From: Loktanella salsilacus
GTDB lineage: Bacteria > Pseudomonadota > Alphaproteobacteria > Rhodobacterales > Rhodobacteraceae
Direction: 5' to 3'
DNA length: 49,615 bases
Assembly: GCF_900114485.1 (NCBI RefSeq)
Contig: NZ_FOTF01000022.1
Coordinates: 1-49,615, forward strand
Shown here: positions 33,966 to 49,615 of the stretch, piece by piece
Numbering within the stretch: position 1 is the stretch's first letter
How the letters are laid out: each line of letters begins with the position of its first letter
The notes under the pieces: generated by a model
What the model was told of the DNA's origin: nothing
What the model saw: the letters and a program-made list of their open reading frames with translations, nothing else
Databases searched by the model: none
Program-made: the position numbers and the translations under genes

Positions 33966-34040
33966 GCTGTGGTAGCTCAGTGGCAGAGCACACCCTTGGT
34001 AAGGGTGAGGTCGAGAGTTCAATCCTCTCTCACAGCACCA
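33966..34040 (+). tRNA. tRNA-Thr (anticodon GGT)
   Basis: The acceptor GCTGTGG pairs with TCACAGC (G-T at the last pair), the D arm is GCTCAGTGGCAGAGC, the anticodon loop is TTGGTAA with anticodon GGT, and the T arm is GAGAGTTCAATCCTCTC. CCA is encoded at 34038-34040. Accessory DNA begins right after it, so it is the probable attachment site of the second island. Confidence 0.96.
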
Positions 34041-34187
34041 TCTGAACCCCTTGATATCAAATGATAATTCTTTGCTATGTGAGCAAACTCACTTGTTGCA
34101 AGGGTGCGAACTTGCGTCAAAGTTGACGCTGAGCCCTTCCAGCGATTCCATGCCGGCGGCGGCTATCACACTGACTTGAGGATTATC

Positions 34188-35222
34188 ATGACCGCAGCAG
34201 AGTTCGAAGCGATATTGGAAACAGTGGCCGAACGACTGAACCGAGACGTGACCGCCGACAAGTCGATGCACAAGCCAGCAATCTTTGAAGCACAAGTCCG
34301 GCACCGCATCTCTGAGCGCCTGGTCGAACTGGGCTTTGACCCGGCACTAGATGAGCAGGTCCAAGCGTTCCCTGATATTGTGATCGGGAATTTCGGTGTT
34401 GAGGTCAAAGCCACCGAAAGCGACAGCTGGCGTTGCATCGCAAACAGTGTGTCAGAAGGAAAGCGCAGCGCAGCCGTCGACAACATATATATCATGTATG
34501 GAAAAATGGGCGGTACGCCGCAGGTCAGGTTTGCAGACTACGGCGACAGCATCATCCACGTTCGCACGTCCCACGTCCCTCGTTTCGAGATCGAGATCGG
34601 GTCTGAACGTTCCCTGTTCGACCAGATTGGAACGACTTACGAAGACTTCCGCAAGCTCGACATGCACGACAAGATGACGCACATCAGGGAATATGCACGA
34701 GGCAGGTTGAATGAGGGTGAGCGGCTGTGGTGGCTTGAAGACAAGCCAGAGGATGAGCAAACCCACACGCTCTCGATGGAGATCCGGCTCTACATGGATC
34801 TGCCCCAAGATGAAAAGCGTGCGATCCGCGCGGAAGCGGTTCTACTTTGCCCCCAAGTCTGCGGCGGCGGTCGGCAACGCCGCAAATATACCGACCCAGT
34901 CTCATACATGATGTCTTACCGCGGCGTCCTTTGCCCTCAAGCACGTGACCTGTTCTCTGCCGGCAGTGTCGCCGGGCCCGCGCGCGGCGGGCATTATGTC
35001 GAGCGTTCGATCATGGCGATCCAAGATGAAATGCGGGAGGCGGCAGCCTATCTCGAGCCAGCGCTGTTCGTCGAATATTGGGGGTCCGACGTTCCGCCAG
35101 ATCAGCGCATTATTGAATGGCTGAAGCGCGCCGATGTTTACGCTGTAGACTTTACACCGTCCCAAAACTTGTTTTTAACTGAACAGAGAATAGAACAGTC
35201 AAAGAACGTTTCTGGGGTTTAA
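34188..35222 (+). CDS. Type II restriction endonuclease
   Basis: From the ATG at 34188 the protein has 344 residues. The PD-(D/E)XK nuclease motif is seen as FPDIVIGNFGVEVKATESDS: Asp63, then Glu72-Val-Lys74. The gene ends one base before the methyltransferase ATG region, the classical head-to-tail restriction-modification arrangement. I do not recognise the exact restriction family, so the cut site is unknown; the m5C partner suggests a target methylated on cytosine. An earlier in-frame start at 34104 is open but has no better support. Confidence 0.75.
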   Translation: MTAAEFEAILETVAERLNRDVTADKSMHKPAIFEAQVRHRISERLVELGFDPALDEQVQAFPDIVIGNFGVEVKATESDSWRCIANSVSEGKRSAAVDNIYIMYGKMGGTPQVRFADYGDSIIHVRTSHVPRFEIEIGSERSLFDQIGTTYEDFRKLDMHDKMTHIREYARGRLNEGERLWWLEDKPEDEQTHTLSMEIRLYMDLPQDEKRAIRAEAVLLCPQVCGGGRQRRKYTDPVSYMMSYRGVLCPQARDLFSAGSVAGPARGGHYVERSIMAIQDEMREAAAYLEPALFVEYWGSDVPPDQRIIEWLKRADVYAVDFTPSQNLFLTEQRIEQSKNVSGV

Positions 35223-35223
35223 G

Positions 35224-36180
35224 ATGAAAAAGCATACCGTCGTATCGATGTTTAGCGGATGCGGCGGCATGGACCTCGGCTTCTTGGGTGGCTTCGACGC
35301 CAACGGAAAGCACTATGCCAAAAACCCATTCGAGATCGTATGGGCAAATGATTTGAACCCGAATGCATGCCGGACATACGAAGCCAATCTGGGTCATCAG
35401 ATCCACGTCGGAAGTGTGTGGGATCACATCGACACCATGCCTGAAAGCTGTGACGTCGTGATCGGCGGTTTCCCATGCCAGGATATCAGTATCAACGGAA
35501 AGCGGGCCGGCGTGGCCGGTGCACGGTCAGGGCTCTACAAAGCCATGGTAGATGCAGTTGAAAAGATGCGGCCGCGGATCTTCGTCGCTGAGAATGTCCG
35601 CGGCCTACTTTACGCTTATAATAAAGACTCGCTTGCGAAAGTTCTTAGCGACTTCACGGCCATCGGCTACGATGTCAGCATCAAGCTTTACCATGCAGCT
35701 GCATACGGCGTTCCGCAGAAGCGCGAGCGTGTGATGATCGTTGGCGTGTTGAACGGATCGGTGCCGTTCGAGCACCCTACCCCGCTGCTTGAAAAGCCTG
35801 ACTGGGTGTCTTCTCGATCAGCGATCGAAGATCTTGAAGGCGTGGACCAGGATCCAGAATTCAGCCACGTCTGGAGCCTCGCCCGAGCGTCAAGCGATCA
35901 AGGCAGCCGTGTTCTGAACCCTGACGTTCCGGCACATACAATCCGTGCGGAATGCCATGGCAACAACCAGTTTCACTACAAGCTGCCACGTCGCATCTCG
36001 ATGCGTGAAGCTGCGCGGTTCCAGACGTTTCCTGACAAATTCATCTTCCACGCCAAGCTTCGCGAGACGGAACGCATGATCGGAAATGCCGTGCCGCCGG
36101 TGTTGGGCTGGCATGTTGCTGGCGCCGTTCTTGAATGTCTGGAGAAAACGGAAGGAGCCGTGTCGATCGCCGCTGAGTGA
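35224..36180 (+). CDS. DNA (cytosine-5) methyltransferase
   Basis: The 318-residue protein has all core motifs of m5C methyltransferases in order: SMFSGCGGMDLGF (motif I, SAM binding), GGFPCQDIS with catalytic Cys85 (motif IV), VAENVRGLLY (motif VI), PQKRERVMIVG (motif VIII), then a target recognition region of about 70 residues and REAARFQTFPDKF and GNAVPPVLGW (motifs IX and X). It protects host DNA from the adjacent endonuclease, one base apart. Confidence 0.95.
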   Translation: MKKHTVVSMFSGCGGMDLGFLGGFDANGKHYAKNPFEIVWANDLNPNACRTYEANLGHQIHVGSVWDHIDTMPESCDVVIGGFPCQDISINGKRAGVAGARSGLYKAMVDAVEKMRPRIFVAENVRGLLYAYNKDSLAKVLSDFTAIGYDVSIKLYHAAAYGVPQKRERVMIVGVLNGSVPFEHPTPLLEKPDWVSSRSAIEDLEGVDQDPEFSHVWSLARASSDQGSRVLNPDVPAHTIRAECHGNNQFHYKLPRRISMREAARFQTFPDKFIFHAKLRETERMIGNAVPPVLGWHVAGAVLECLEKTEGAVSIAAE

Positions 36181-36804: not shown

Positions 36805-37029
36805 TTCATTCTCCAGTTTGTCTGTAAGCTTGTGTCAGAGCCCGCCAGCTTGCGCCGGCGGGCCTTGTGTTCGATCAGCCCCGCAGGAAATCAGGCCTCA
36901 ATCTGCGGCGGTTTTCTTCATGCGCAGCACTCACCGCTTATCTGCGTCGCACCACAGCCCGAACCAAGCGCCCGTGCGCAGGGCTTATGCAGTATGCCCA
37001 CCACACCCTCATACAAAATGATGTACGTT

Positions 37030-39187: not shown

Positions 39188-40207
39188 TTAACGCTTGAGA
39201 AGGTGCATATTTACAATCGCCTGGGACATCGCTCGCGAGATGTAGTAGCGTTCTGCGTGCTCTTCGATCCTCTCCTTGAGGACTTTCATGTGATCTGTAG
39301 CAACCTCTCGCTGAGAGATCCAAAGCAAAAGATCTACCGCTTGAAGGCCTCGGTTATGGGTTGATGGCATGAGTGTAAACTTGCCCTTTGGATACGGTGC
39401 CATCTCAGCTGAAGGGAACTTTCCGTCCCCGCGTTCTAAAATCACCATCTGTCCAAATTCCTCATAATACCTTTTGAGCTCTGACTGAAACTCTTGCTGC
39501 TGATCATGCACAAGGGTTTCGGGCTGACAGCCGTGGATCTTGCAGAAATGGTGTATCGCTTGAAATGCTTGAGTGAATGCGATAACATTTGGTGAGTGGC
39601 CTTGGTATCCTTTGCGTTTTTCGGTGACGAGTAGGGTGAATTCGTCTTGGTTTTCTTTAGCCCACTTGATCGAATTCCTAAATACTTTCTTTATTGCGGC
39701 CGGCTCTGAAGACTTTCTGACCGTCTTAGCAATCTCTGTTGCGATAGTTACGATGCCTTTAGCATCGTCATTCAGGAACGCCTCCCAAAACTTCTTCGCC
39801 AATTCACGGTTCATTGCGGAGTCGCTGACTAAGCAAAGGACGTGCCGGTGCATTTCATCCCAATACCAATGACCAGGCGTGGCGTTGTTTTCGCCTGGAT
39901 CAAAGATCATGTCGACAAACTTCGTCGGAGCAATATAGGGTTTGTGGACACTGAAAATGTTGAGAACCCAAGGGCCGCATTCCCCAATGCTATCGAGCAC
40001 GGAATGCGACAAGTCGACAAGCTCATATTCAGGCCACTCATTCGCATGCAGTCGCTCAACACCTTTTTCTTTGAGAAAGGGATCAAGCACCTCCCCAACG
40101 GACGTGGCAATATTAATTTTTGAGAGCAAGGTCCCGAGTTGAAAATTTTCATTCACATCGAAAATATTACGTCCAGAGTGGCCCGTTTCGTCGATATAAG
40201 CAAACAT
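39188..40207 (-). CDS. DUF3800 domain protein
   Basis: The 339-residue protein starts MFAYIDETGHSG, the hallmark Y-I-D-E-(S/T)-G of the DUF3800 family, an RNase H-like fold. The second family hallmark is near the C-terminus: STHNRGLQAVDLLLW, with the conserved Asp after Gln-Ala, and the terminal helices follow. DUF3800 proteins are often found in defence regions and mobile elements; nuclease activity is suspected from the fold but not proven. It stands alone, in a region of other accessory genes. Confidence 0.8.
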   Translation of the reverse strand: MFAYIDETGHSGRNIFDVNENFQLGTLLSKINIATSVGEVLDPFLKEKGVERLHANEWPEYELVDLSHSVLDSIGECGPWVLNIFSVHKPYIAPTKFVDMIFDPGENNATPGHWYWDEMHRHVLCLVSDSAMNRELAKKFWEAFLNDDAKGIVTIATEIAKTVRKSSEPAAIKKVFRNSIKWAKENQDEFTLLVTEKRKGYQGHSPNVIAFTQAFQAIHHFCKIHGCQPETLVHDQQQEFQSELKRYYEEFGQMVILERGDGKFPSAEMAPYPKGKFTLMPSTHNRGLQAVDLLLWISQREVATDHMKVLKERIEEHAERYYISRAMSQAIVNMHLLKR

Positions 40208-40737: not shown

Positions 40738-41778
40738 TCAGTGAAGAAGGTAGGGGGTGGTGTCGTCGATCGCGTGCGCATGTTCGACAATCTTGATGAT
40801 GTCGCGCATGCTGAATGACCGGTCAGCGTATTTCACGGCATCAATTACCGCCCGGGCGGCGTCATCGCTGAGCCCTCGCCGGCCGGACATCGTGCACGCA
40901 AATACGATCGTCTGCCCTCGTGTCGGCGGCGGCAGGTTTATGACGCGGCAACGGCTCAGTAACGGCGCAGGAATGCCGTCTGTCGTGTTCGCGGTCAGGA
41001 TCCAACTGATATGCGACATGTCGAAAGACACGCGGTAGAACGGGCAATCCCAAGCGGCGGCAGTTGCTGGCTCTAAAAGGCTCAGCAACGCATCTTCAAG
41101 CGACATGCGCCGCCCCTTTTCGGACGTCATAGACACAGACTTACAGATCTCATCGACGATGATGAGCGGGTTCGCGATCCGGCTCGAAATGATCATCTCT
41201 ACCGGCCGCCCCGGCTGCGCTGTAGACCACCCGCGCTCGGTGCCGTTGATCGAGAAGCCGACGGCGCCCTTGCTCGCGTCGATGTCGACCGCGGGCAGGC
41301 CGATCTGATGCGCGACGAACCGAGCCCATACGCTCTTGCCGATGCCAGGCGGGCCGACCAGGATCACCGGCGGCACCCGGACCGGTGTGCCGTCCTCAGC
41401 CGCGCGGCGCAGAGCGTGCCAGACGTACTGCGTTGCAGGTGCAAGCCATCCGAATTCCTCGTGAACAGCCGCGGCGATCTCGTCGGCCCGGTCCGCGGTG
41501 ACGGTCATAGCATCGACGCCGCCAGCGATCCGGCCGAGCTTGATCAGTTCTTCAGTTTTAAGCGGTGATGCCGCCCGGATCGCCTCGTGCAGCTTCAATG
41601 TGCGGCGGGTAATCACGCGGTGCGCATCATGCATGACGTGCTTTTCAGCGATCTCGATGCCGTCGAAGCTCTTAAGACCCTTGCCTTGCCGCAACATTTT
41701 GTAGAACGCCCGCCAACGCTTTTCGATTTTATCGCGAGTCAGGAACACGTTGCCGGCCTCGATAATCTTGATCTTCAT
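40738..41778 (-). CDS. AAA+ ATPase with Lon-like ATPase core, no protease domain
   Basis: The 346-residue protein has Walker A VGPPGIGKS (141-149), a segment GTERGWSTAQPGRPVEMI (179-196) similar to the pore region of Lon, Walker B PLIIVDE (204-210), and a sensor-1 Asn in SWILTANTTDGIP with an Arg finger in PLLSRCRVI. The Lon Ser-Lys protease domain is absent. The N-terminal 110 residues are helical and specific to this protein. It follows the VapE gene in the same direction, 109 bases later, so they probably work together; a helicase-loader or unfoldase role is possible. Confidence 0.85.
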   Translation of the reverse strand: MKIKIIEAGNVFLTRDKIEKRWRAFYKMLRQGKGLKSFDGIEIAEKHVMHDAHRVITRRTLKLHEAIRAASPLKTEELIKLGRIAGGVDAMTVTADRADEIAAAVHEEFGWLAPATQYVWHALRRAAEDGTPVRVPPVILVGPPGIGKSVWARFVAHQIGLPAVDIDASKGAVGFSINGTERGWSTAQPGRPVEMIISSRIANPLIIVDEICKSVSMTSEKGRRMSLEDALLSLLEPATAAAWDCPFYRVSFDMSHISWILTANTTDGIPAPLLSRCRVINLPPPTRGQTIVFACTMSGRRGLSDDAARAVIDAVKYADRSFSMRDIIKIVEHAHAIDDTTPYLLH

Positions 41779-41887: not shown

Positions 41888-43477
41888 TCAGTTTGTGATC
41901 TTTCTGATGTGCTCATCAAGGAGCTTGATGAACTTCTCGTTCTCGACGTCGATCTCGTAGATCACCCCCTTCACACCGCCACGGCGGCCCTGCGCGCCGC
42001 TCTGATTGATGAAGTTAGTGCGCTCTGCAGCGGCTTTGGCCAGATTCGCGATGCCTTTCACGTAGTCATGCGGGTCGGAGTTCGTAGCCGCGCACCAGAG
42101 CGGCTTGAGAACGAAGGACGTCTCGACGGAGAACTGCCTGCCGTCCTGTTTAAAGTTCCAGAACTCGGTGCCTGCGCGGTGGCCTGGCTGGACCGTCGAC
42201 ATAATGTGGTCTTCGATTGCGAAGCGCAGGTCATCAGCATCGTCAGTGACGCGGCGTCCCTCGTAGAGCGACTCCGCATACTCGCGGGAGGGGCGGGACA
42301 GCGACAGGTCGAGAGTGCCGTGCGGCTGCTCCGCGCGGCGGCGGTTGTATATCGCGACGGCTTGGGCCCAAATATTATCGATGTTCTCGATGAGGCGGTC
42401 TGTGTCGATCTCACCGCGGCGCGGCAGGTTCATGACCAAGGGCCAGAAGCGGCGATTGTTGAACGGGTCGATCAGATAGTCGCGGCTGTCGGCGGTGCCC
42501 ATCGTGATGAACTGTCGATAGTAAGTGCGAGGGGCGACGGAGTATGCAACGCGGGTCTTATCTGCCGTCTGAGACAGACGCGACTTCAACTTCTTCGTGT
42601 CACGCTTGCTTGATATCTCCATTTCGGCCAGTTCAACGACGTGACAGCCCTGCATCTTCTGCACGAACACGTTGTCATTCGCGATGTCGTCGCTGCCCAG
42701 TGTGCCAAAGAGTCCGCGAGCGATGTTTTCCACGAATGTCGACTTGCGCTGGCCGCCCTCCCGGCTGCCCTCCACGACCGGCGTGAAATCGAATTTGTGC
42801 CCCGGTTCGAATGCCCTCGCTACTCCAGCGACGAACCAGTTGATCGCGCACTCTGTGTGATACAGGTTGTTTTCGCAGCCGAGATAGTCGTGAAAGAACG
42901 TCTTAAGACGGTCGATGCCGTCCCACTCAGTCGCATCGAGCATGTCCTGGAGCGGGTTGATTGTTTGACGATCGGCGGCGATTTTCAATGCCATTTTCAG
43001 CACGCGAAGGTCGAAGGAAAGGCCGTAGCCACCTTGATTCTCGGGGGCCGTCAGCCAGGCGCAGAGAGCGCTGATCAAGCCTTCGTCGAGTTCGCGGGGG
43101 TGCTCCGCGCTCGAAATGACTACGGGGAAATCAGGGATGCCGGAGTCGAAGGTGCGATTCATGAACTCGCTGTTCGTGAAAGCGTTATGCACGAACGCAT
43201 TCTTTGTGTTGCGAGCGTTGATGATAATTTTCGTGAGGTTGTGCGTCGTGCCGCGGATCGCATTCTCTTTGCCTGAGCGGTCGAGATCGAGCATCCAGAG
43301 CTCATCATAGTCATCGTCATCATATTGGATCAACTCAACGCCGCTCAACGTCGCGCGGACACGGGCCGGGACCTGGTCCGGGGTGGTGTCGTCGATCGTC
43401 AGCGGCGACTCGATGACCGGCAGAATGTCGACAGTGTTGCTATCCTCGTCATTCACCGGCGCATCGTTTGCCGGCAC
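41888..43477 (-). CDS. VapE-family primase/helicase-like replication protein
   Basis: The 529-residue protein resembles the C-terminal part of VapE / D5-type proteins of phages and satellites. It has a degenerate P-loop in VEGSREGGQRKST (236-247), HVVELAEME (279-287) as Walker B, and FITMGTADSRDYLIDPFNNRRF (323-344) as sensor region and arginine finger. GTG at 43475-43477 is the first start in the open frame, but it has no ribosome-binding site. The same frame extends upstream as 45 further codons to an ATG at 43612, interrupted by a TAG at 43589-43591 (see findings), so this gene may be inactive. Confidence 0.75.
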   Translation of the reverse strand: MPANDAPVNDEDSNTVDILPVIESPLTIDDTTPDQVPARVRATLSGVELIQYDDDDYDELWMLDLDRSGKENAIRGTTHNLTKIIINARNTKNAFVHNAFTNSEFMNRTFDSGIPDFPVVISSAEHPRELDEGLISALCAWLTAPENQGGYGLSFDLRVLKMALKIAADRQTINPLQDMLDATEWDGIDRLKTFFHDYLGCENNLYHTECAINWFVAGVARAFEPGHKFDFTPVVEGSREGGQRKSTFVENIARGLFGTLGSDDIANDNVFVQKMQGCHVVELAEMEISSKRDTKKLKSRLSQTADKTRVAYSVAPRTYYRQFITMGTADSRDYLIDPFNNRRFWPLVMNLPRRGEIDTDRLIENIDNIWAQAVAIYNRRRAEQPHGTLDLSLSRPSREYAESLYEGRRVTDDADDLRFAIEDHIMSTVQPGHRAGTEFWNFKQDGRQFSVETSFVLKPLWCAATNSDPHDYVKGIANLAKAAAERTNFINQSGAQGRRGGVKGVIYEIDVENEKFIKLLDEHIRKITN

Positions 43478-43839
43478 GGACGGCGCGACGGCGGTGCAGA
43501 TCTGGCTGATACGTGTGTCAGTGGCAGCGATCGCGCGCTCATGCGCATCGAGCTCCGTATTGAGATCGTTGATGATGTCGTTGAAGTTCTATTCTGCTGT
43601 TTCAGTTGTCATGTCATGTCCTGTCGTTGCTGTATAATGTAGCATTTCTTGTGCAAAAGTTCGCATACATGAGCTTCACGTCGTGAAGGTTCGATCAACT
43701 ATGTCAGCGTCATGCAGCGTCACACAAAGTGCCCGTGAGAATCAGCGTAAACCTGTCATGTGCGGTTCTCTCACTCGAGATGTGTGCATCTTGCGATCAC
43801 CCTCAAAAACTTGTCAGGTGACGGGTGAGTGAAAACAAC

Positions 43840-44176
43840 GTTTCCAGTTTGCGAGATCTCATTTCCACCACCAAGTCACTGTTTTTGCTCACCGTTCACC
43901 CCAAGTGGAAACATCCCTATAATTTTGCTTCCGCCCCACGCCATTGTTTTAATTAAGAAAAAATGCGTTTGGAAACAAAATGGGTGGAAACAGCCTATCT
44001 TGCCCGGTGGGCGGGGGAGGTGGGGGAGTGGGAAGAGAGTACATACTTACAACATATTCCATTTTTGATGATTTCGTTTCCACTTACCCTCAGCCCCCTT
44101 ATTTTTATGGCTCCGAGGTGGAAACAATCCCGGAAACAACCCGAAAACATGGTGGAAACGTAATTCTCGTTTCCAC
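43840..44176. repeat. GTGGAAAC iteron array, probable replication origin
   Basis: Six exact copies of the octamer GTGGAAAC occur: plus strand at 43905-43912, 43984-43991, 44118-44125 and 44152-44159, minus strand at 44076-44083 and 44169-44176. Near matches are at 43840-43847, 43861-43868, 43969-43976 and 44130-44137. The last two exact copies form a nine-base inverted repeat with a seven-base loop (GTGGAAACG/CGTTTCCAC, 44152-44176). A/T-rich DNA (43913-43970) lies between groups. The position is directly upstream of the VapE gene; the organisation resembles iteron origins of satellites and plasmids. Confidence 0.7.
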
Positions 44177-44278
44177 TTGCCCCTCCCGCCCCTGTCCTCC
44201 GGACGGCCTGGATCCATCGATGCGCCATCGCGCAAGAACTGTGACATGCGCCATACCGCACTATGATACTGTGCTCGC

Positions 44279-44587
44279 ATGAGCAGCGATGTAAGACATA
44301 TTACAAGACGCGTCGTCGATCGCGATACGCAGCGGGCGTTGATCGCAGCTGTGTTCAGCAGCGGTAGTTCACGTGATGCGGCGGGCCGACTCGGCATTCC
44401 GGCAGAACGAGTCTCGCACACGATCAGCGAGGCGTATGCCTCGCAATACGACCTGCCGAATCTCGATGATCGGGCACGGGTTCGCGACTGCATCACCTGC
44501 AGCAACGCGATAATCTCTCAGCGCGCAGTTCACCGCGTCTGCCGCCCCTGCCGCGGTGATGCCGGCATGTCGGAGGATGCTGCATGA
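44279..44587 (+). CDS. Small helix-turn-helix and zinc-ribbon-like protein
   Basis: The 102-residue product reads RDAAGRLGIPAERVSHTISE, like a small helix-turn-helix (about residues 32-52), and CITCSNAIIS...HRVCRPC, a CxxC pair of a possible zinc ribbon, at 70-92. A regulator or DNA-binding factor of the island is inferred. Its stop overlaps the start of the gene at 44584 (ATGA), which was then cut by IS66. Confidence 0.65.
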   Translation: MSSDVRHITRRVVDRDTQRALIAAVFSSGSSRDAAGRLGIPAERVSHTISEAYASQYDLPNLDDRARVRDCITCSNAIISQRAVHRVCRPCRGDAGMSEDAA

Positions 44588-44632
44588 GCCAGCGTCGCGC
44601 TGCATATAATGATGTCACGCCTGTGCAAAAGC
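44584..44632 (+). pseudogene. Gene truncated by IS66 insertion
   Basis: An ATG at 44584 overlaps the stop of the preceding gene and reads MSQRRAAYNDVTPVQKR before the IS66 end at 44633. Only 16 codons of the original gene are left, so its product is unknown. Its coupling to the upstream gene shows that it belonged to the same operon. Confidence 0.55.
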
Positions 44633-44693
44633 GTAAACATTCGCCGGGTGCCGTCTGGCTGCTGTGCTGTGAGATCGCTTATCGAGTGTCCTT

Positions 44694-45095
44694 ATGGACG
44701 CACACGAGAACACCCCCCGCATTCAAGTTTTATCGGTCTCTGATACTGGGCGGCGTCGCCGCTGGACAGATGCCGAGAAGGTCCGGATCGTTGAGGAAAG
44801 CCTTGGCGATGGCGTGACATTGGCCGAGGTCGCACGGCGCCATGACGTTTCGCGGTCCCAGCTTTACGATTGGCGCTATCGTTGTCGGCATGGGTTGCTG
44901 AGTTCTGGCCCAAAGTTTTTGCGTGTTTTCAACATCGACGAAGCTCCAGGCGGGCTTGATCCTGATAATATGCCGACTCCGCAGGGTTCTGTGATGACTG
45001 TCGATTTTGGCGCGCGCTGTCGTGTGTCGATCCCGTCCGACTTTGACATGGAGGCTGCAGCGCGTTTACTCAACAGTCTAGCGGTGGGACGATGA
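44694..45095 (+). CDS. tnpA: IS66-family accessory protein TnpA
   Basis: The 133-residue protein has an N-terminal IS3/IS911-type helix-turn-helix (RRRWTDAEKVRIVEESLGDG, then HDVSRSQLYDWRYRCRHG). Its C-terminal part is less conserved. In IS66 elements TnpA is needed with TnpB and TnpC. The gene ends by overlapping tnpB (ATGA). Confidence 0.9.
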   Translation: MDAHENTPRIQVLSVSDTGRRRRWTDAEKVRIVEESLGDGVTLAEVARRHDVSRSQLYDWRYRCRHGLLSSGPKFLRVFNIDEAPGGLDPDNMPTPQGSVMTVDFGARCRVSIPSDFDMEAAARLLNSLAVGR

Positions 45096-45442
45096 TCGCG
45101 TTTCCGGCGGGCACGAAGGTTTGGATTGCGGGCGGCGTGACGGACATGCGGCGCGGTATGAATACCTTGGCGCTGGCGGTCCAGCAGGGCCTTGGGCGTG
45201 ACCCGCATGCCGGTGAGATCTTTTGCTTTCGGGGTCGCAAGGGTGATCTCGTGAAACTGCTCTGGCATGACGGGGTCGGCATGTCGCTGTATCTGAAGCG
45301 GCTTGAGGCGGGGAAGTTCATCTGGCCGGTAAGCCAGGATGGGACGGCTGTTTCGATATCCGCCGCCCAGCTCGGCTATCTTCTGGAAGGGATCGACTGG
45401 AGGAACCCGCGCTGGACGCAAAGGCCCAGAACAGATGGATAA
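45092..45442 (+). CDS. tnpB: IS66-family TnpB (Orf2) protein
   Basis: The 116-residue protein is a standard IS66 Orf2: GVTDMRRGMNTLALAVQQGL, CFRGRKGDLVKLLWHDGVGM, SLYLKRLEAGKFIWP. Its biochemical role is unknown, but it is required for transposition of IS66. Starts inside tnpA. Confidence 0.95.
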   Translation: MIAFPAGTKVWIAGGVTDMRRGMNTLALAVQQGLGRDPHAGEIFCFRGRKGDLVKLLWHDGVGMSLYLKRLEAGKFIWPVSQDGTAVSISAAQLGYLLEGIDWRNPRWTQRPRTDG

Positions 45443-45501
45443 ATTGCGGTGAAACGCCTGTTTTTATTGGCGCTTCATGCTGTCTGTGGTAAATATTTGC
45501 C

Positions 45502-46208
45502 ATGTCAGATGCCGCTTCCGAAATCGCCAGATTGAGCGCCGCCCTTGCCGCGCAGCCCGCGCGCAAGCTGCGGAGGTCGAACTGGCACAGGCCCGCGCCT
45601 TGGCCTCTTGCACGCAAGCAATGATCCAGGAATTGAAGCTGGAGATCGCAAAGCTGCGGCGTGATAAATACGGCATCTCTTCCGAGCGTCGCGCGCGACT
45701 GATCGATCAGCTGGAGTTGCAGCTTGAGGAACTGGAAGCCGCTGCCACCGAGGATGCGTTGGCGGCTGAACAAGCCGCAGCGCAGGACAAGACCAGCACC
45801 GTGCGCGCCTTCACGCGGCGCAAGCCGGTGCGCAAACCCTTTCCCGAGCATCTGCCGCGCGAGTGTGTGGTGGTTGAGGCACCGACCAACTGCACCTGCT
45901 GCGGCTCGGACCGCATCGTGAAGATGGGTGAAGACATTACCGACACGCTGGAAGTTATTCCGCGTCAGTGGAAGGTGATCCAGACCGTCCGCGAGAAGTT
46001 CACTTGTCGGTCATGCGAGAAGATCAGCCAGCCACCAGCGCCTTTCCACGCCATTCCGCGCGGTTGGGCTGGGCCGCAACTGATCGCCATGATTGCTTTC
46101 GACAAGTATGGACAGCACCAACCACTGAACCGGCAATCCGATCGGATTGCGCGAGAAGGTGTCGATCTCAGCCTGTCTACACTGGCTGATCTGAAAAGAT
46201 TGTTTTAG
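45502..46208 (+). pseudogene. tnpC: IS66 transposase tnpC, frameshifted and C-truncated
   Basis: The start MSDAASEIARLSAALAA is in one frame (ATG 45502), whereas the following helical region AEVELAQARALASCTQAMIQ is one base shifted, so an indel lies near 45553-45570. The second frame continues through the leucine-rich region (RARLIDQLELQLEELEA), the zinc-finger motif (CTCCGSD...CRSCEK) and DKYGQHQPLNRQSDR, then ends at 46208 after STLADLKRLF, where tnpC normally continues into its DDE domain. The catalytic domain is absent. Confidence 0.85.
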
Positions 46209-46699: not shown

Positions 46700-48302
46700 T
46701 GTTTATTTCCACCCAGAAGTGACCCGGGTAGCGGCATAATTTCCATTGAGAATTGTCCCATGTGACCCTTCCCCCAGCGGCATTCGCAGCGGGGGACTTT
46801 GGAGTGATACACATGGGACTTTTGAACATCATCCGACGTATGGCTTTGCGAGAGAAGTTGCCCCCGCGCGAGATATCGCGGCGGACCGGGATGTCGCGCA
46901 ACACCATCAAAAAGTATCTGAACGCAGGCACGATCGAGCCTCAGTTTGCGACGCCGGAGCGGCAAAGCAAGCTCGATCCGTTCGCTGAGAAGCTTGTCGG
47001 TTGGCTGAAGACGGAGGCGGGGAAGTCTCGCAAACAGCGGCGGACGCTGAAGCAGATGCATGCCGATCTGGTGGTTCTGGGCTTTGACGGGTCTTACAAC
47101 CGGGTTGCGGCTTTTGCGCGTGACTGGCGAGCCGATCGGCAGCGAGATCAGCAGACGACAGGCCGCGGCACCTTTGTGCCTCTGTCGTTCCGCCCGGGCG
47201 AGGCGTTCCAGTTCGACTGGAGCGAGGATTTTGCCGTTCTGGGTGGTGAGCGCACGAAGCTGCAAGTCGCCCACATCAAGCTGTCGCACAGCCGGGCCTT
47301 TTTGGTCCGAGCCTATCTGCTGCAAACCCACGAGATGCTGTTCGAAGCCCATTGGCACGGGTTCCGGGTCTTCGGTGGCATCCCCGAGCGCGGCATCTAC
47401 GATAACATGCGCACCGCAGTCGATCGCGTCGGTCGCGGAAAGGAGCGACAGGTCAACATGCGCTTTCTCGCAATGGCGAACCACTATGTATTTGAGCCAG
47501 CGTTCTGCAATCCGGCCGCAGGCTGGGAGAAGGGGCAGGTCGAGAAGAACGTGCAGGATTCCCGACATCGACTGTGGCAACCCATGCCGGACTTCCCCGA
47601 TCTTGCGGCCCTGAACGACTGGCTGGAACAGCAGTGTGTCGCATTATGGGGTAAGATCCCGCACGCAGCATTACCTGGGAGCGTTGCTGACGTTTGGGCC
47701 GCAGAACAAGCAGCGCTGATGCCATTACCACCCGCATTCGATGGCTTTGTCGAGCATAGCAAGCGGGTATCGCCGACCTGTCTGATCAGCTTTGAACGCA
47801 ATCGCTACAGCGTTCCAGCGTCATTTGCGAACCGCCCGGTGAGCTTGCGGGTTTATCCTGAACGTCTGGTGATCGCCGCCGAAGGACAGATCCTGTGCGA
47901 ACATATGCGGGTGATCCAGCGCAGCCACCAATTGCCACCACGCACGATTTACAACTGGCGGCATTACTTGGCTGTTCTCCAGCGCAAGCCCGGTGCCTTG
48001 CGGAACGGTGCCCCCTTTTCCGAATTCCCTCCGGCCTTCAAGCAGCTGCAAGATCTCATGTTGCGTCGTCCCGGCGGTGATCGGGAGATGGTCGATATCC
48101 TAGCGCTGGTTCTGCATCACGACGAACAGGCTGTGCTGGTCGCCGTGGAAATGGCGCTGGCTGAAGGTGTCGCGACCAAGACACATGTGCTGAACCTTCT
48201 GCACCGTCTTATCGACGGAAAGACGATCGGCGGGCCCGACATCGATACGCCGCAGGCGCTGATCCTTCAGCGCGAACCAGAAGCCAATGTCGAACGCTAT
48301 GA
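46700..48302 (+). mobile_element. IS21-family element, truncated
   Basis: The end TGTTTATTTCCACCCAGAAG at 46700 and repeats of similar sequence downstream fit IS21 terminal repeats. The element contains istA but no istB: sequence breaks at 48303 where an IS3-type end begins. It is therefore non-autonomous. Confidence 0.85.
46813..48302 (+). pseudogene. istA: IS21-family transposase istA, C-terminally truncated
   Basis: From the ATG at 46813 (MGLLNIIRRMALREKLPPRE) the frame shows a helix-turn-helix (EISRRTGMSRNTIKKYL), then the DDE domain: FQFDWSEDF, YDNMRTAVD and KGQVEKNVQDSRH with the Glu. After NVERYD the next codons come from an IS3 end, so the last few dozen residues and istB are missing. 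A frame remains open to 48426, but its end is foreign. Confidence 0.85.
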
Positions 48303-48425
48303 TGAACCGCCCCGGGTTTACCGGAGGGCAAAACTCTCGGAGAAATGCCCATTATGGAACAGTCACACAACAAGAAGACCTCGAAGCCGTATTCACCTGA
48401 GTTCCGCGAACGTGCGGTGCGGTTA
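48303..48425 (+). mobile_element. IS3-family fragment with start of orfA
   Basis: TGAACCGCCCCGGGTTTACC at 48303 is a typical IS3-group terminal repeat. At 48354 an ATG begins a short frame MEQSHNKKTSKPYSPEFRER, then AVRL, the N-terminus of IS3 OrfA. The fragment stops after about 24 codons near the IS66 end at 48443. It interrupts the IS21 istA gene. Confidence 0.8.
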
Positions 48426-48457
48426 GGCACCCCCGATGTAACGTAAGCACTCCATTG

Positions 48458-48754
48458 CTACCGCGGTAATTTAGCCTTGATGCGCAGCACGAGGTCCTTG
48501 TCGTCCACGAAGTCGTCGAGGAATTCGTGCCATGTCCTGGTGGTGAGACGGGCAGCTTTGATCAGATCGGTCAGCTCTTCGATACCGTCATCGGTCAGGG
48601 CTGTGATCGTCTCGTCGGGGCCCACGTAAACGCTTACAATGCTCCCGTAGGTCAGATTTTCGTCGTTATAGACGATGGCCTCGAGGAGTTCGGCATCTTC
48701 GTCCAGCATTTTAGCGACGTAGTCGAGCGTGCAGATATGGGTGATCGCAGCCAT
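48458..48754 (-). CDS. IS66-associated passenger protein
   Basis: From the ATG at 48752-48754 the product has 98 residues, acidic, with ITHICTLDYVAKMLDEDAEL, YNDENLTYGSIVSVYVGPDE and ALTDDGIEELTDLIKA. Proteins of this type accompany IS66 elements downstream of tnpC in alphaproteobacteria; function unknown. It overlaps the tnpC stop by ATGA, so it belongs to the element's operon. A start at 48799 would overlap tnpC more deeply and is less likely. Confidence 0.75.
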   Translation of the reverse strand: MAAITHICTLDYVAKMLDEDAELLEAIVYNDENLTYGSIVSVYVGPDETITALTDDGIEELTDLIKAARLTTRTWHEFLDDFVDDKDLVLRIKAKLPR

Positions 48755-49615
48755 CACGCGACCTTTGAGTGAGCAGCGGCCATCGGCGTCCAATTCCATG
48801 GAAGTAGTTCATCCAGCCGGTTGATCTTGTGATCGTGGATGCGGTCGAGGATGTCAGCGAGATAGGCCTGTGGGTCGAGGCCGTTTAGCTTGGCGGTTTC
48901 AATGATCGTCATGGCGCGTGCAAGTGTTTCCGCACCGGTGTCGGCCCCGGCGAAGAGCCAGTTCTTTCTGCCGATTCCGATCGGTCGCAGAGCACGTTCC
49001 GCCGGATTATTGTCGATGGCCACACGACCGTCTGCCAGGAATAAACTGAAGGCCTCCCGGCGGTTGAGGCCATAGCGGAAAGCCTTGGCGAGATTGCTCT
49101 TGCCCGGAATGCGCAGGAGTTGCTGCTCGGACCACGCAAAGAAGGCCAGAACCTTCGGCAGGCTATACTTTTGACGTGCCGCGTGACGGACGTCCGCAGG
49201 CTGGCCATTGATGTCGCGCTCGATGTCATAGAGTTTGCCGATCCGGTCGAGCGCCTCGCGGGCGATCTCGGACTTGGTCGATGCCCAGAAGTCGTGGAAG
49301 TCACGGCGCAGGTGCGCCCAGCAAGCCGCTTCGCGCAAACGGGGGGTGCCGTCAGGCTCTGGCTCATAAAGCTTAGCATAGCCCTTGTAGCCGTCAGCCT
49401 GAAGTATGCCGCGGGCGCTGGCCAGATGGCTCAGGACATGCTCTTCCTTCCAGTCCTGTGCGAACCGATAGACGGCCCCGGGCGGGCTTGATCCAGCCCA
49501 AGGGCGCTGGTCGCGCACATAGGCCCAGATCCGGCCCTGCCTGACGCCTTTACCAAGCCCCTTGTCGCGCAACGACCGGTCCAGCACACGGATCGGCGTG
49601 TCATCTGCGTGCAGC
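48754..49615 (-). CDS. tnpC: IS66-family transposase tnpC, C-terminal part (partial)
   Basis: The frame is open to the window edge and begins with LHADDTPIRVL, just before the DDE domain. It continues with RIWAYVRDQRPWAG, ILQADGYKGYAKLYEP, EAACWAHLRRDFHDF and DNNPAERALRPIGIGRKNW, the conserved catalytic region of IS66, and ends LDELLPW...AAAHSKVA. The N-terminal part is outside the window, so intactness is unknown. Confidence 0.92.
   Translation of the reverse strand, partial: LHADDTPIRVLDRSLRDKGLGKGVRQGRIWAYVRDQRPWAGSSPPGAVYRFAQDWKEEHVLSHLASARGILQADGYKGYAKLYEPEPDGTPRLREAACWAHLRRDFHDFWASTKSEIAREALDRIGKLYDIERDINGQPADVRHAARQKYSLPKVLAFFAWSEQQLLRIPGKSNLAKAFRYGLNRREAFSLFLADGRVAIDNNPAERALRPIGIGRKNWLFAGADTGAETLARAMTIIETAKLNGLDPQAYLADILDRIHDHKINRLDELLPWNWTPMAAAHSKVA

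What the first reader, a model, noticed from the sequence alone, without database searches (positions are those of the whole stretch)
43840..44176. Iteron-like array beside a VapE gene: candidate satellite replication origin
Six exact GTGGAAAC octamers and at least four near matches in both orientations lie in 337 bases, with an AT-rich block inside and a perfect 9-base inverted pair at 44152-44176. VapE-type proteins are replication proteins of phage satellites such as SaPIs, whose origins have iterons flanking AT-rich DNA. The combination suggests a replicating satellite or integrated plasmid in Rhodobacterales, a setting where such elements are little described.
Basis: partly seen in the sequence, partly recalled or inferred. 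Interest (0 to 1): 0.85.

Follow-up and report, generated by a model that had tools for sequence, protein, structure and literature searches.

The report
Likely relic origin beside damaged helicase
A cluster of short DNA repeats inside a mobile island of a Rhodobacterales bacterium looks like the start site for copying a phage-like element, but the copying enzyme encoded beside it carries several apparent defects, so the site is probably a relic or has been put to another use.

Summary
The repeats are real: six exact GTGGAAAC copies and four one-mismatch copies lie in 43829-44176, while the whole 4.1-Mb genome has 128 exact copies. The array sits in a tRNA-Thr island whose far end, marked by an exact 61-bp direct repeat and a tyrosine integrase, is on another contig.

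Origin reading: around 60 VapE loci of the same order, an element-specific octamer array lies just 3' of vapE (at least 5 copies in 27 of 59, against 0 of 54 on the 5' side). IMG/VR (33 of 78) and GTDB (41 of 77) loci agree, as does phage P4. So vapE beside an octamer array is the usual layout of this replicon type.

Three things depart from it. The array is 5' of vapE, which is rare. This VapE lacks a primase domain, has two extra Walker A residues, and has Asp where 86 of 86 aligned relatives have Asn. An in-frame stop is the eighth codon after the best upstream ATG.

I read it as a decayed or repurposed VapE-type origin, not a proven satellite. Binding and replication are untested, and the same octamer array also occurs in phages away from VapE.

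The parts
43829..44176 (.). Octamer (iteron-like) array: 6 exact GTGGAAAC (43905+, 43984+, 44076-, 44118+, 44152+, 44169-) and 4 one-mismatch copies (43829+, 43840-, 43861-, 43969+)
43941..43980 (.). AT-rich stretch (75% AT) inside the array, candidate melting site
   Evidence: melting inferred
44041..44080 (.). Second AT-rich stretch (72% AT) inside the array
44152..44176 (.). Perfect 9-base inverted pair, two octamers facing each other with 7 bases between
41888..43477 (-). VapE-domain helicase gene, 529 codons from an internal GTG; no primase domain; two extra Walker A residues; motif C Asn replaced by Asp
43478..43612 (-). 5' extension of the vapE frame: ATG at 43612, in-frame TAG as eighth codon (43591-43589), then 37 open codons up to the GTG
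40738..41778 (-). AAA ATPase gene downstream of vapE on the same strand
   Evidence: Pfam AAA 2.5e-13
44279..44587 (+). Small ORF with weak HTH similarity, divergent from vapE, next to the array; possible regulator
   Evidence: (HTH matches below cut-off)
33966..34040 (+). tRNA-Thr (GGT), integration site
33996..34056 (+). att repeat: exact 61-bp copy on contig C22 at 188554-188614 (minus strand)
34104..35222 (+). Type II restriction enzyme gene (cargo)
   Evidence: PADLOC 1.5e-107
35224..36180 (+). C5 cytosine DNA methyltransferase gene (cargo)
44694..46208 (+). IS66 TnpA, TnpB and truncated transposase
46753..48426 (+). IS21 transposase
48754..49615 (-). IS66 transposase, C-terminal part (profile 153-387), cut by the contig end

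Best explanation
The array is the iteron-type replication origin of an integrated VapE-type replicon, working on the same principle as the SaPI/PICI rep-ori and P4 alpha-ori modules. In the working ancestor the VapE protein would bind the GTGGAAAC octamers through its C-terminal domain, assemble as hexamers, melt AT-rich DNA between octamer groups and load itself to replicate the excised circle. In this copy the module is probably no longer functional, or has been put to another use, because the helicase frame and active site are altered. Shown here: the array, its place between vapE and a divergent HTH-like ORF, the att-bounded island, the fold match, the altered motifs and the general vapE-array association. 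Inferred: binding, melting, replication, excision and loss of function.
For: Octamer cluster far above chance. Most repeated octamer within 700 bp 3' of vapE in 60 loci of the order: at least 5 copies in 27 of 59, 5' side 0 of 54, random segments 5 of 352 (Fisher 6e-10 and 4e-21). IMG/VR loci: 33 of 78, 3 of 74, 4 of 318; GTDB loci: 41 of 77, 0 of 75, 3 of 297. The same count finds P4's annotated type 1 repeats behind alpha. 9 of 15 further plasmid and phage records have at least 4 copies behind vapE, among them the 4,340-bp plasmid pGO128. The window array has octamers on both sides of an AT-rich stretch, as described for PICI origins (PMC6092414). 5' arrays do exist: phage Bcep781, five copies in the gap before gp52, and viral loci L205 and L220. 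Motifs of some near relatives resemble it, for example GGTGGAAC in L160. att repeat and integrase.
Against: The array is 5', not 3', of vapE, and no array lies 3'. Motif similarity to the window does not rise significantly with VapE relatedness (rho 0.15, p 0.16, 93 arrays). The same octamer forms arrays next to terminase or methyltransferase genes in viral contigs, mostly without VapE in the held stretch, and in L240 vapE has a different array of its own. 6 of 15 further records and 32 of 59 loci of the order do not reach their thresholds of 4 and 5 copies. The divergent-gene position and promoter-like matches also fit an operator. No binding or replication data.
Confidence: 0.6

Rival explanations
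1. Operator array: the octamers are binding sites of a transcription regulator (for instance the HTH-like protein 44279-44587) that controls the divergent vapE and HTH-like promoters.
For: The array lies between divergent genes; 3 promoter-like sites in 43400-44700 against 0.8 expected, one with TATAAT at 43918-43923 inside the array; an HTH-like ORF is adjacent (weak).
Against: In most other VapE loci with an array it lies behind vapE, not at its promoter. Ten sites over 348 bp with AT-rich stretches are more than most operators need (general knowledge). The two functions can coexist.
Confidence: 0.2
2. Packaging or other phage-type site: the array is related to the GTGGAAAC arrays beside terminase and methyltransferase genes of some phages, for example a pac-like site picked up from a helper phage.
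For: 25 viral contigs match a three-octamer pattern, 16 of them with at least 5 octamers in 400 bp; in L258 copies lie before and inside a terminase small subunit gene, in L245 next to terminase large, in L236, L239 and L240 before DNA methyltransferases. PICIs can carry helper pac or cos sites (PMC6092414).
Against: No terminase or packaging family among the island proteins scanned. The phage arrays have many 12-bp spacings and a GGTTTCCA core; the exact copies of the window array do not have that spacing. 13 of the 25 contigs belong to one related group, so the octamer identity may be coincidence.
Confidence: 0.08
3. Repurposed pair: a VapE that has lost its ATPase but kept its DNA-binding domain, with decoy iterons, interferes with incoming phages that use VapE-type initiators.
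For: The ORF stays open for 529 codons with coding-like GC3 of 0.77 although catalytic positions changed; the C-terminal part is modelled with mostly good confidence; a restriction-modification pair lies in the same island.
Against: No PADLOC hit for vapE and only weak hits for the AAA gene. Simple decay explains the same facts. No phage with this array next to its VapE was found among the 25 pattern contigs examined.
Confidence: 0.1

Closest known systems
SaPI / PICI replication module (pri-rep-ori)
   Same: Initiator helicase of the VapE/PriRep fold (7pds best match); repeated short iterons with AT-rich DNA between sets (PMC6092414 passages); integrated element with integrase and att repeats
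   Different: Array 5' of the gene instead of 3'; no primase, terminase or PICI regulator recognised; island at least about 39 kb if the two contigs are one element; altered helicase motifs
Satellite phage P4 (alpha, crr and ori1)
   Same: Octamer repeats in both orientations; P4 ori1 lies apart from the 3' end of alpha, in a gap between divergent genes
   Different: P4 also has octamers directly behind alpha (crr) and alpha has 777 aa; the window has no array behind vapE and no match to P4 late genes was seen; different octamer (GGTGAACA)
Burkholderia phage Bcep781 replication region
   Same: Five octamer copies in the gap 5' of the VapE-like gene gp52, none behind it
   Different: Complete phage; longer gene product (2,622-bp gene); different octamer
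Gluconobacter oxydans plasmid pGO128 (4,340 bp)
   Same: Short VapE without room for a large primase domain, small HTH protein, octamer array next to vapE
   Different: Array behind vapE; free plasmid; compact Walker A and motif C Asn kept
SCCmec Cch2 module
   Same: Integrated element whose helicase reads direct repeats next to its gene through the C-terminal domain (PMC7581432 passages)
   Different: Different helicase family by that paper (D5_N/Primase_Cterm type), three iterons, array behind the gene

Membership tests
VapE-type iteron replicon (broad sense) | VapE-family gene with an adjacent element-specific octamer array | tested here: met
VapE-type iteron replicon (broad sense) | Intact helicase motifs (Walker A, motif C Asn) | tested here: not met
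   59 of 59 order loci with letters and 27 of 27 viral relatives keep both; the window does not
VapE-type iteron replicon (broad sense) | Autonomous replication of the array with the protein | not testable with these tools
   needs an experiment
PICI / SaPI | Origin immediately 3' of the initiator gene | tested here: not met
   array is 5'; at most 2 copies of any octamer in 700 bp on the 3' side
PICI / SaPI | Iterons on both sides of an AT-rich region | tested here: met
   partly by construction, since the AT-richest 40 bp was sought inside the array
PICI / SaPI | Integrase and specific att site | tested here: met
   61-bp direct repeat and tyrosine integrase on C22; that C18 and C22 are one element is inferred
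PICI / SaPI | Primase, separate or fused to rep | tested here: not met
   no primase domain on the 529-aa VapE and no primase family among the other island proteins scanned; unseen DNA between the contigs remains
PICI / SaPI | Helper-phage induction and packaging | not testable with these tools
   no packaging family matched
P4-like satellite | alpha-type primase-helicase with octamers behind the gene (crr) | tested here: not met

The most novel reading that the evidence does not exclude
The island keeps a catalytically dead VapE with an intact iteron-binding domain together with a decoy origin, and uses them against, or parasitises, phages whose VapE-type initiators read similar octamers: an anti-replication device, or an orphan origin fired in trans.
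Probability: 0.1. Interest if true: 0.85.

Novelty: new variant of a known kind. Interest (0 to 1): 0.5.

Why it matters
The wider result matters more than this one copy. In about half of the VapE loci examined, from phages, plasmids and islands of several phyla, an octamer array peculiar to the element sits next to the helicase gene, mostly right behind it. [quoted passage not shown] if the arrays found here prove to be origins, a layout of that kind is not confined to PICIs, and initiator-iteron pairs could be predicted for many uncharacterised elements. This window is then a useful exception: an array on the other side of a damaged initiator, which makes decay versus repurposing testable.

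Tried and rejected
Single-protein search for close relatives of VapE in GTDB genomes and IMG/VR: none returned; of the AAA protein in IMG/VR: none. DNA search of window 43600-44600 in 61 genomes (own genome and 60 relatives): outside the own place only short, chance-level hits, best E 0.008. Megablast of the island against plasmids: 122 records; the 20 listed cover only the IS66 and IS21 pieces. Empty site: in six congeners compared, C22 flank DNA is not next to tRNA-Thr, and in eight congeners the matches to C22 flank DNA lie elsewhere, so no clean empty site was found.

I first took the exact GTGGAAAC arrays of 25 viral contigs as direct support. I dropped that: only 3 of 25 have VapE in the held stretch, in L240 vapE has its own different array, and the GTGGAAAC arrays examined lie by methyltransferase or terminase genes.

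A link between the AAA gene and VapE was rejected: the 43%-identical AAA homologue of a congener lies beside type I restriction genes and no VapE match was found in the stretches fetched there. 5'-side repeats of L224 (tandem 9-mer at a contig edge) and L186 (copies on both sides, not looked into) were not counted as precedents.

Rows dropped: of 68 VapE places outside the own genome, the 60 best were fetched, the 8 weakest not. In one search one locus (L116) had no 3' sequence and six had a short 5' side. In one search, 2 viral and 3 genome loci were too short on the 3' side and 6 and 5 on the 5' side. L148 was fetched but left out of the 15-record test because its annotated vapE is a short fragment. 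The three sets share some loci and hold near-identical prophages, so counts are not independent events.

Full report
OBSERVATION. GTGGAAAC occurs six times in the window, all within 43905-44176. With one mismatch allowed, ten of the window's 46 sites lie at 43829-44176; outside this region no 337-bp stretch of the window holds more than 3. The genome has 128 exact copies in 4.126 Mb. The 9-base inverted pair and AT-rich stretches are as described. The repeats therefore need an explanation.

PLACE. The array lies between vapE (minus strand) and a small ORF with weak HTH similarity (plus strand, 44279-44587). Behind vapE comes an AAA ATPase gene (40738-41778). The region belongs to an island that begins at tRNA-Thr (33966-34040). 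The stretch 33996-34056 recurs exactly, 61 bp, on contig C22 at 188554-188614; a search of the whole genome found it as the best of three other matches, the other two being about 80% identical. A tyrosine integrase starts 2.1 kb from that copy, with an HTH gene next to it. C18 ends inside an IS66 transposase from profile position 153 on, C22 ends inside one at position 90, in orientations that would fit a single transposase gene spanning a small gap; this is suggestive only, because IS66 is a multi-copy kind of element. If the two contigs are neighbours, the island is about 39 kb or slightly more. A congener (G393) has two further partial copies of the tRNA end and, 5 kb from one of them, an integrase 44% identical to that of C22, so tRNA-Thr is a hotspot. 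Next to the tRNA are a type II restriction enzyme and a C5 methyltransferase.

ORIGIN TEST. I fetched 60 of the 68 VapE places found in the order and counted, without reference to the window's motif, the most repeated octamer in 700 bp on each side of vapE. On the 3' side at least 4 copies occur in 36 of 59 and at least 5 in 27 of 59; on the 5' side in 1 and 0 of 54; in random segments of the same loci in 12 and 5 of 352, some of which may be displaced arrays, since in several prophages cargo genes separate vapE from its array. In 14 control stretches of 9-12 kb without a VapE hit in view, the best 400-bp cluster had 3 to 5 copies. Two further sets fetched with an alignment behave alike at the 5-copy level: IMG/VR 33 of 78 (5' side 3 of 74, random 4 of 318), GTDB genomes 41 of 77 (0 of 75, 3 of 297) (Fisher values). 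After removing segments with identical first 300 bases, 93 of 197 have at least 5 copies; near-identical ones remain. Different elements mostly have different octamers. The same count on P4 returns its annotated type 1 octamers behind alpha. Of 15 further plasmid and phage records, 9 have at least 4 copies behind vapE, including the 4,340-bp plasmid pGO128, and 6 do not. Published work describes this for SaPI, E. coli PICI and SCCmec Cch2: iterons directly behind the initiator gene, read by its C-terminal domain for SaPI Rep and Cch2; for one E. coli PICI a rep-ori plasmid was maintained and deletion of ori reduced colonies (PMC6092414 and PMC7581432, passages read).

WHERE THE WINDOW DIFFERS. 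First, its array is on the 5' side and none is on the 3' side. Such cases are rare; the clear ones seen are phage Bcep781 (five copies between gp51 and gp52) and viral loci L205 (four copies) and L220 (five). P4's ori1 also lies away from the 3' end of alpha. Second, VapE here has 529 aa and no primase domain, and its active site departs from the family: Walker A has two extra residues, seen in 0 of 59 order loci and 0 of 27 viral relatives with letters there, and the motif C position that is Asn in 59 of 59 and 27 of 27 is Asp. Third, the best upstream ATG (43612), with AGGA six bases before it, meets an in-frame TAG as its eighth codon; 37 codons follow before the first later start codon, GTG at 43477, and they have the same codon-position GC pattern as the gene. 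A sequencing error at the stop cannot be excluded. The rest of the frame is open with GC3 of 0.77. The AlphaFold2 model (28 sequences, mean pLDDT 80, pTM 0.73, first 55 residues disordered) has a helicase core and a C-terminal part whose element order I read as winged-helix-like; the best PDB matches are the chains of 7pds, PriRep1 with dsDNA.

RESULTS AGAINST. Similarity of octamers to the window's does not rise significantly with VapE relatedness (rho 0.15, p 0.16, 93 arrays); the 25 nearest arrays are somewhat closer than for letter-shuffled versions of the motif (5 of 200 shuffles reach the observed mean). The octamer is not specific to VapE: a three-octamer pattern found 25 viral contigs, 16 with at least five octamers in 400 bp, but only 3 had VapE in the held stretch. 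In one of these, L240, vapE has its own array of 13 copies of another octamer and the GTGGAAAC array precedes a methyltransferase gene; in L236 and L239 it also precedes a methyltransferase, and no array of 3 or more copies lies within 700 bp behind vapE. In L258 the copies lie before and inside a terminase small subunit gene. So octamer identity alone proves nothing; the argument rests on the position next to vapE and on the general rule, and the window breaks the usual side of that rule.

VERDICT. The array is most likely the iteron-type origin of an integrated VapE-type replicon, of the same working principle as SaPI/PICI and P4, in a copy that is decayed or repurposed. It should not be filed as a PICI or a P4-like satellite, because defining features (array behind the gene; primase) were tested and not met in the sequence seen. 

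LITERATURE LIMITS. A search for papers holding both words VapE and iterons found none. Broader searches listed SaPI, PICI, PLE and P4 works; in the titles and abstract starts seen there was no survey of arrays across VapE elements. Most subscription papers are missing from the library, so I do not claim that the rule is unpublished.

Noticed in passing
window 36901-36984 (-): Rfam Proteo-phage-1 RNA match just above its gathering score (42.6 against 42) inside the island.
   Followed up: no
L258:3079-3420, and L236, L239, L240, L242, L244, L250: A family of GTGGAAAC/GTTTCCA arrays with many 12-bp spacings lies before and inside a terminase small subunit gene or before phage DNA methyltransferases, separate from vapE; possibly a packaging or regulatory site.
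   Followed up: partly
G000:C22:192878-196112 (L057): The far part of the island carries two Y-family polymerase genes and an S24 peptidase gene of UmuD type between them.
   Followed up: no
G393:C1, about 2254462-2397497: A congener has two partial copies of the tRNA-Thr end beyond its full tRNA-Thr gene, with a related integrase near one and an AAA homologue beside type I restriction genes: a tRNA-Thr hotspot.
   Followed up: partly
L089, L090, L093, L095, L099, L101, L103: In these prophages the array lies 2-4.5 kb behind vapE with other genes between; in L091 and L107 a RuvC-like resolvase gene (confirmed for L091) follows the array.
   Followed up: partly
window 39188-40207 (-): DUF3800 protein gene in the island (Pfam 6.7e-5, above its cut-off).
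   Followed up: no
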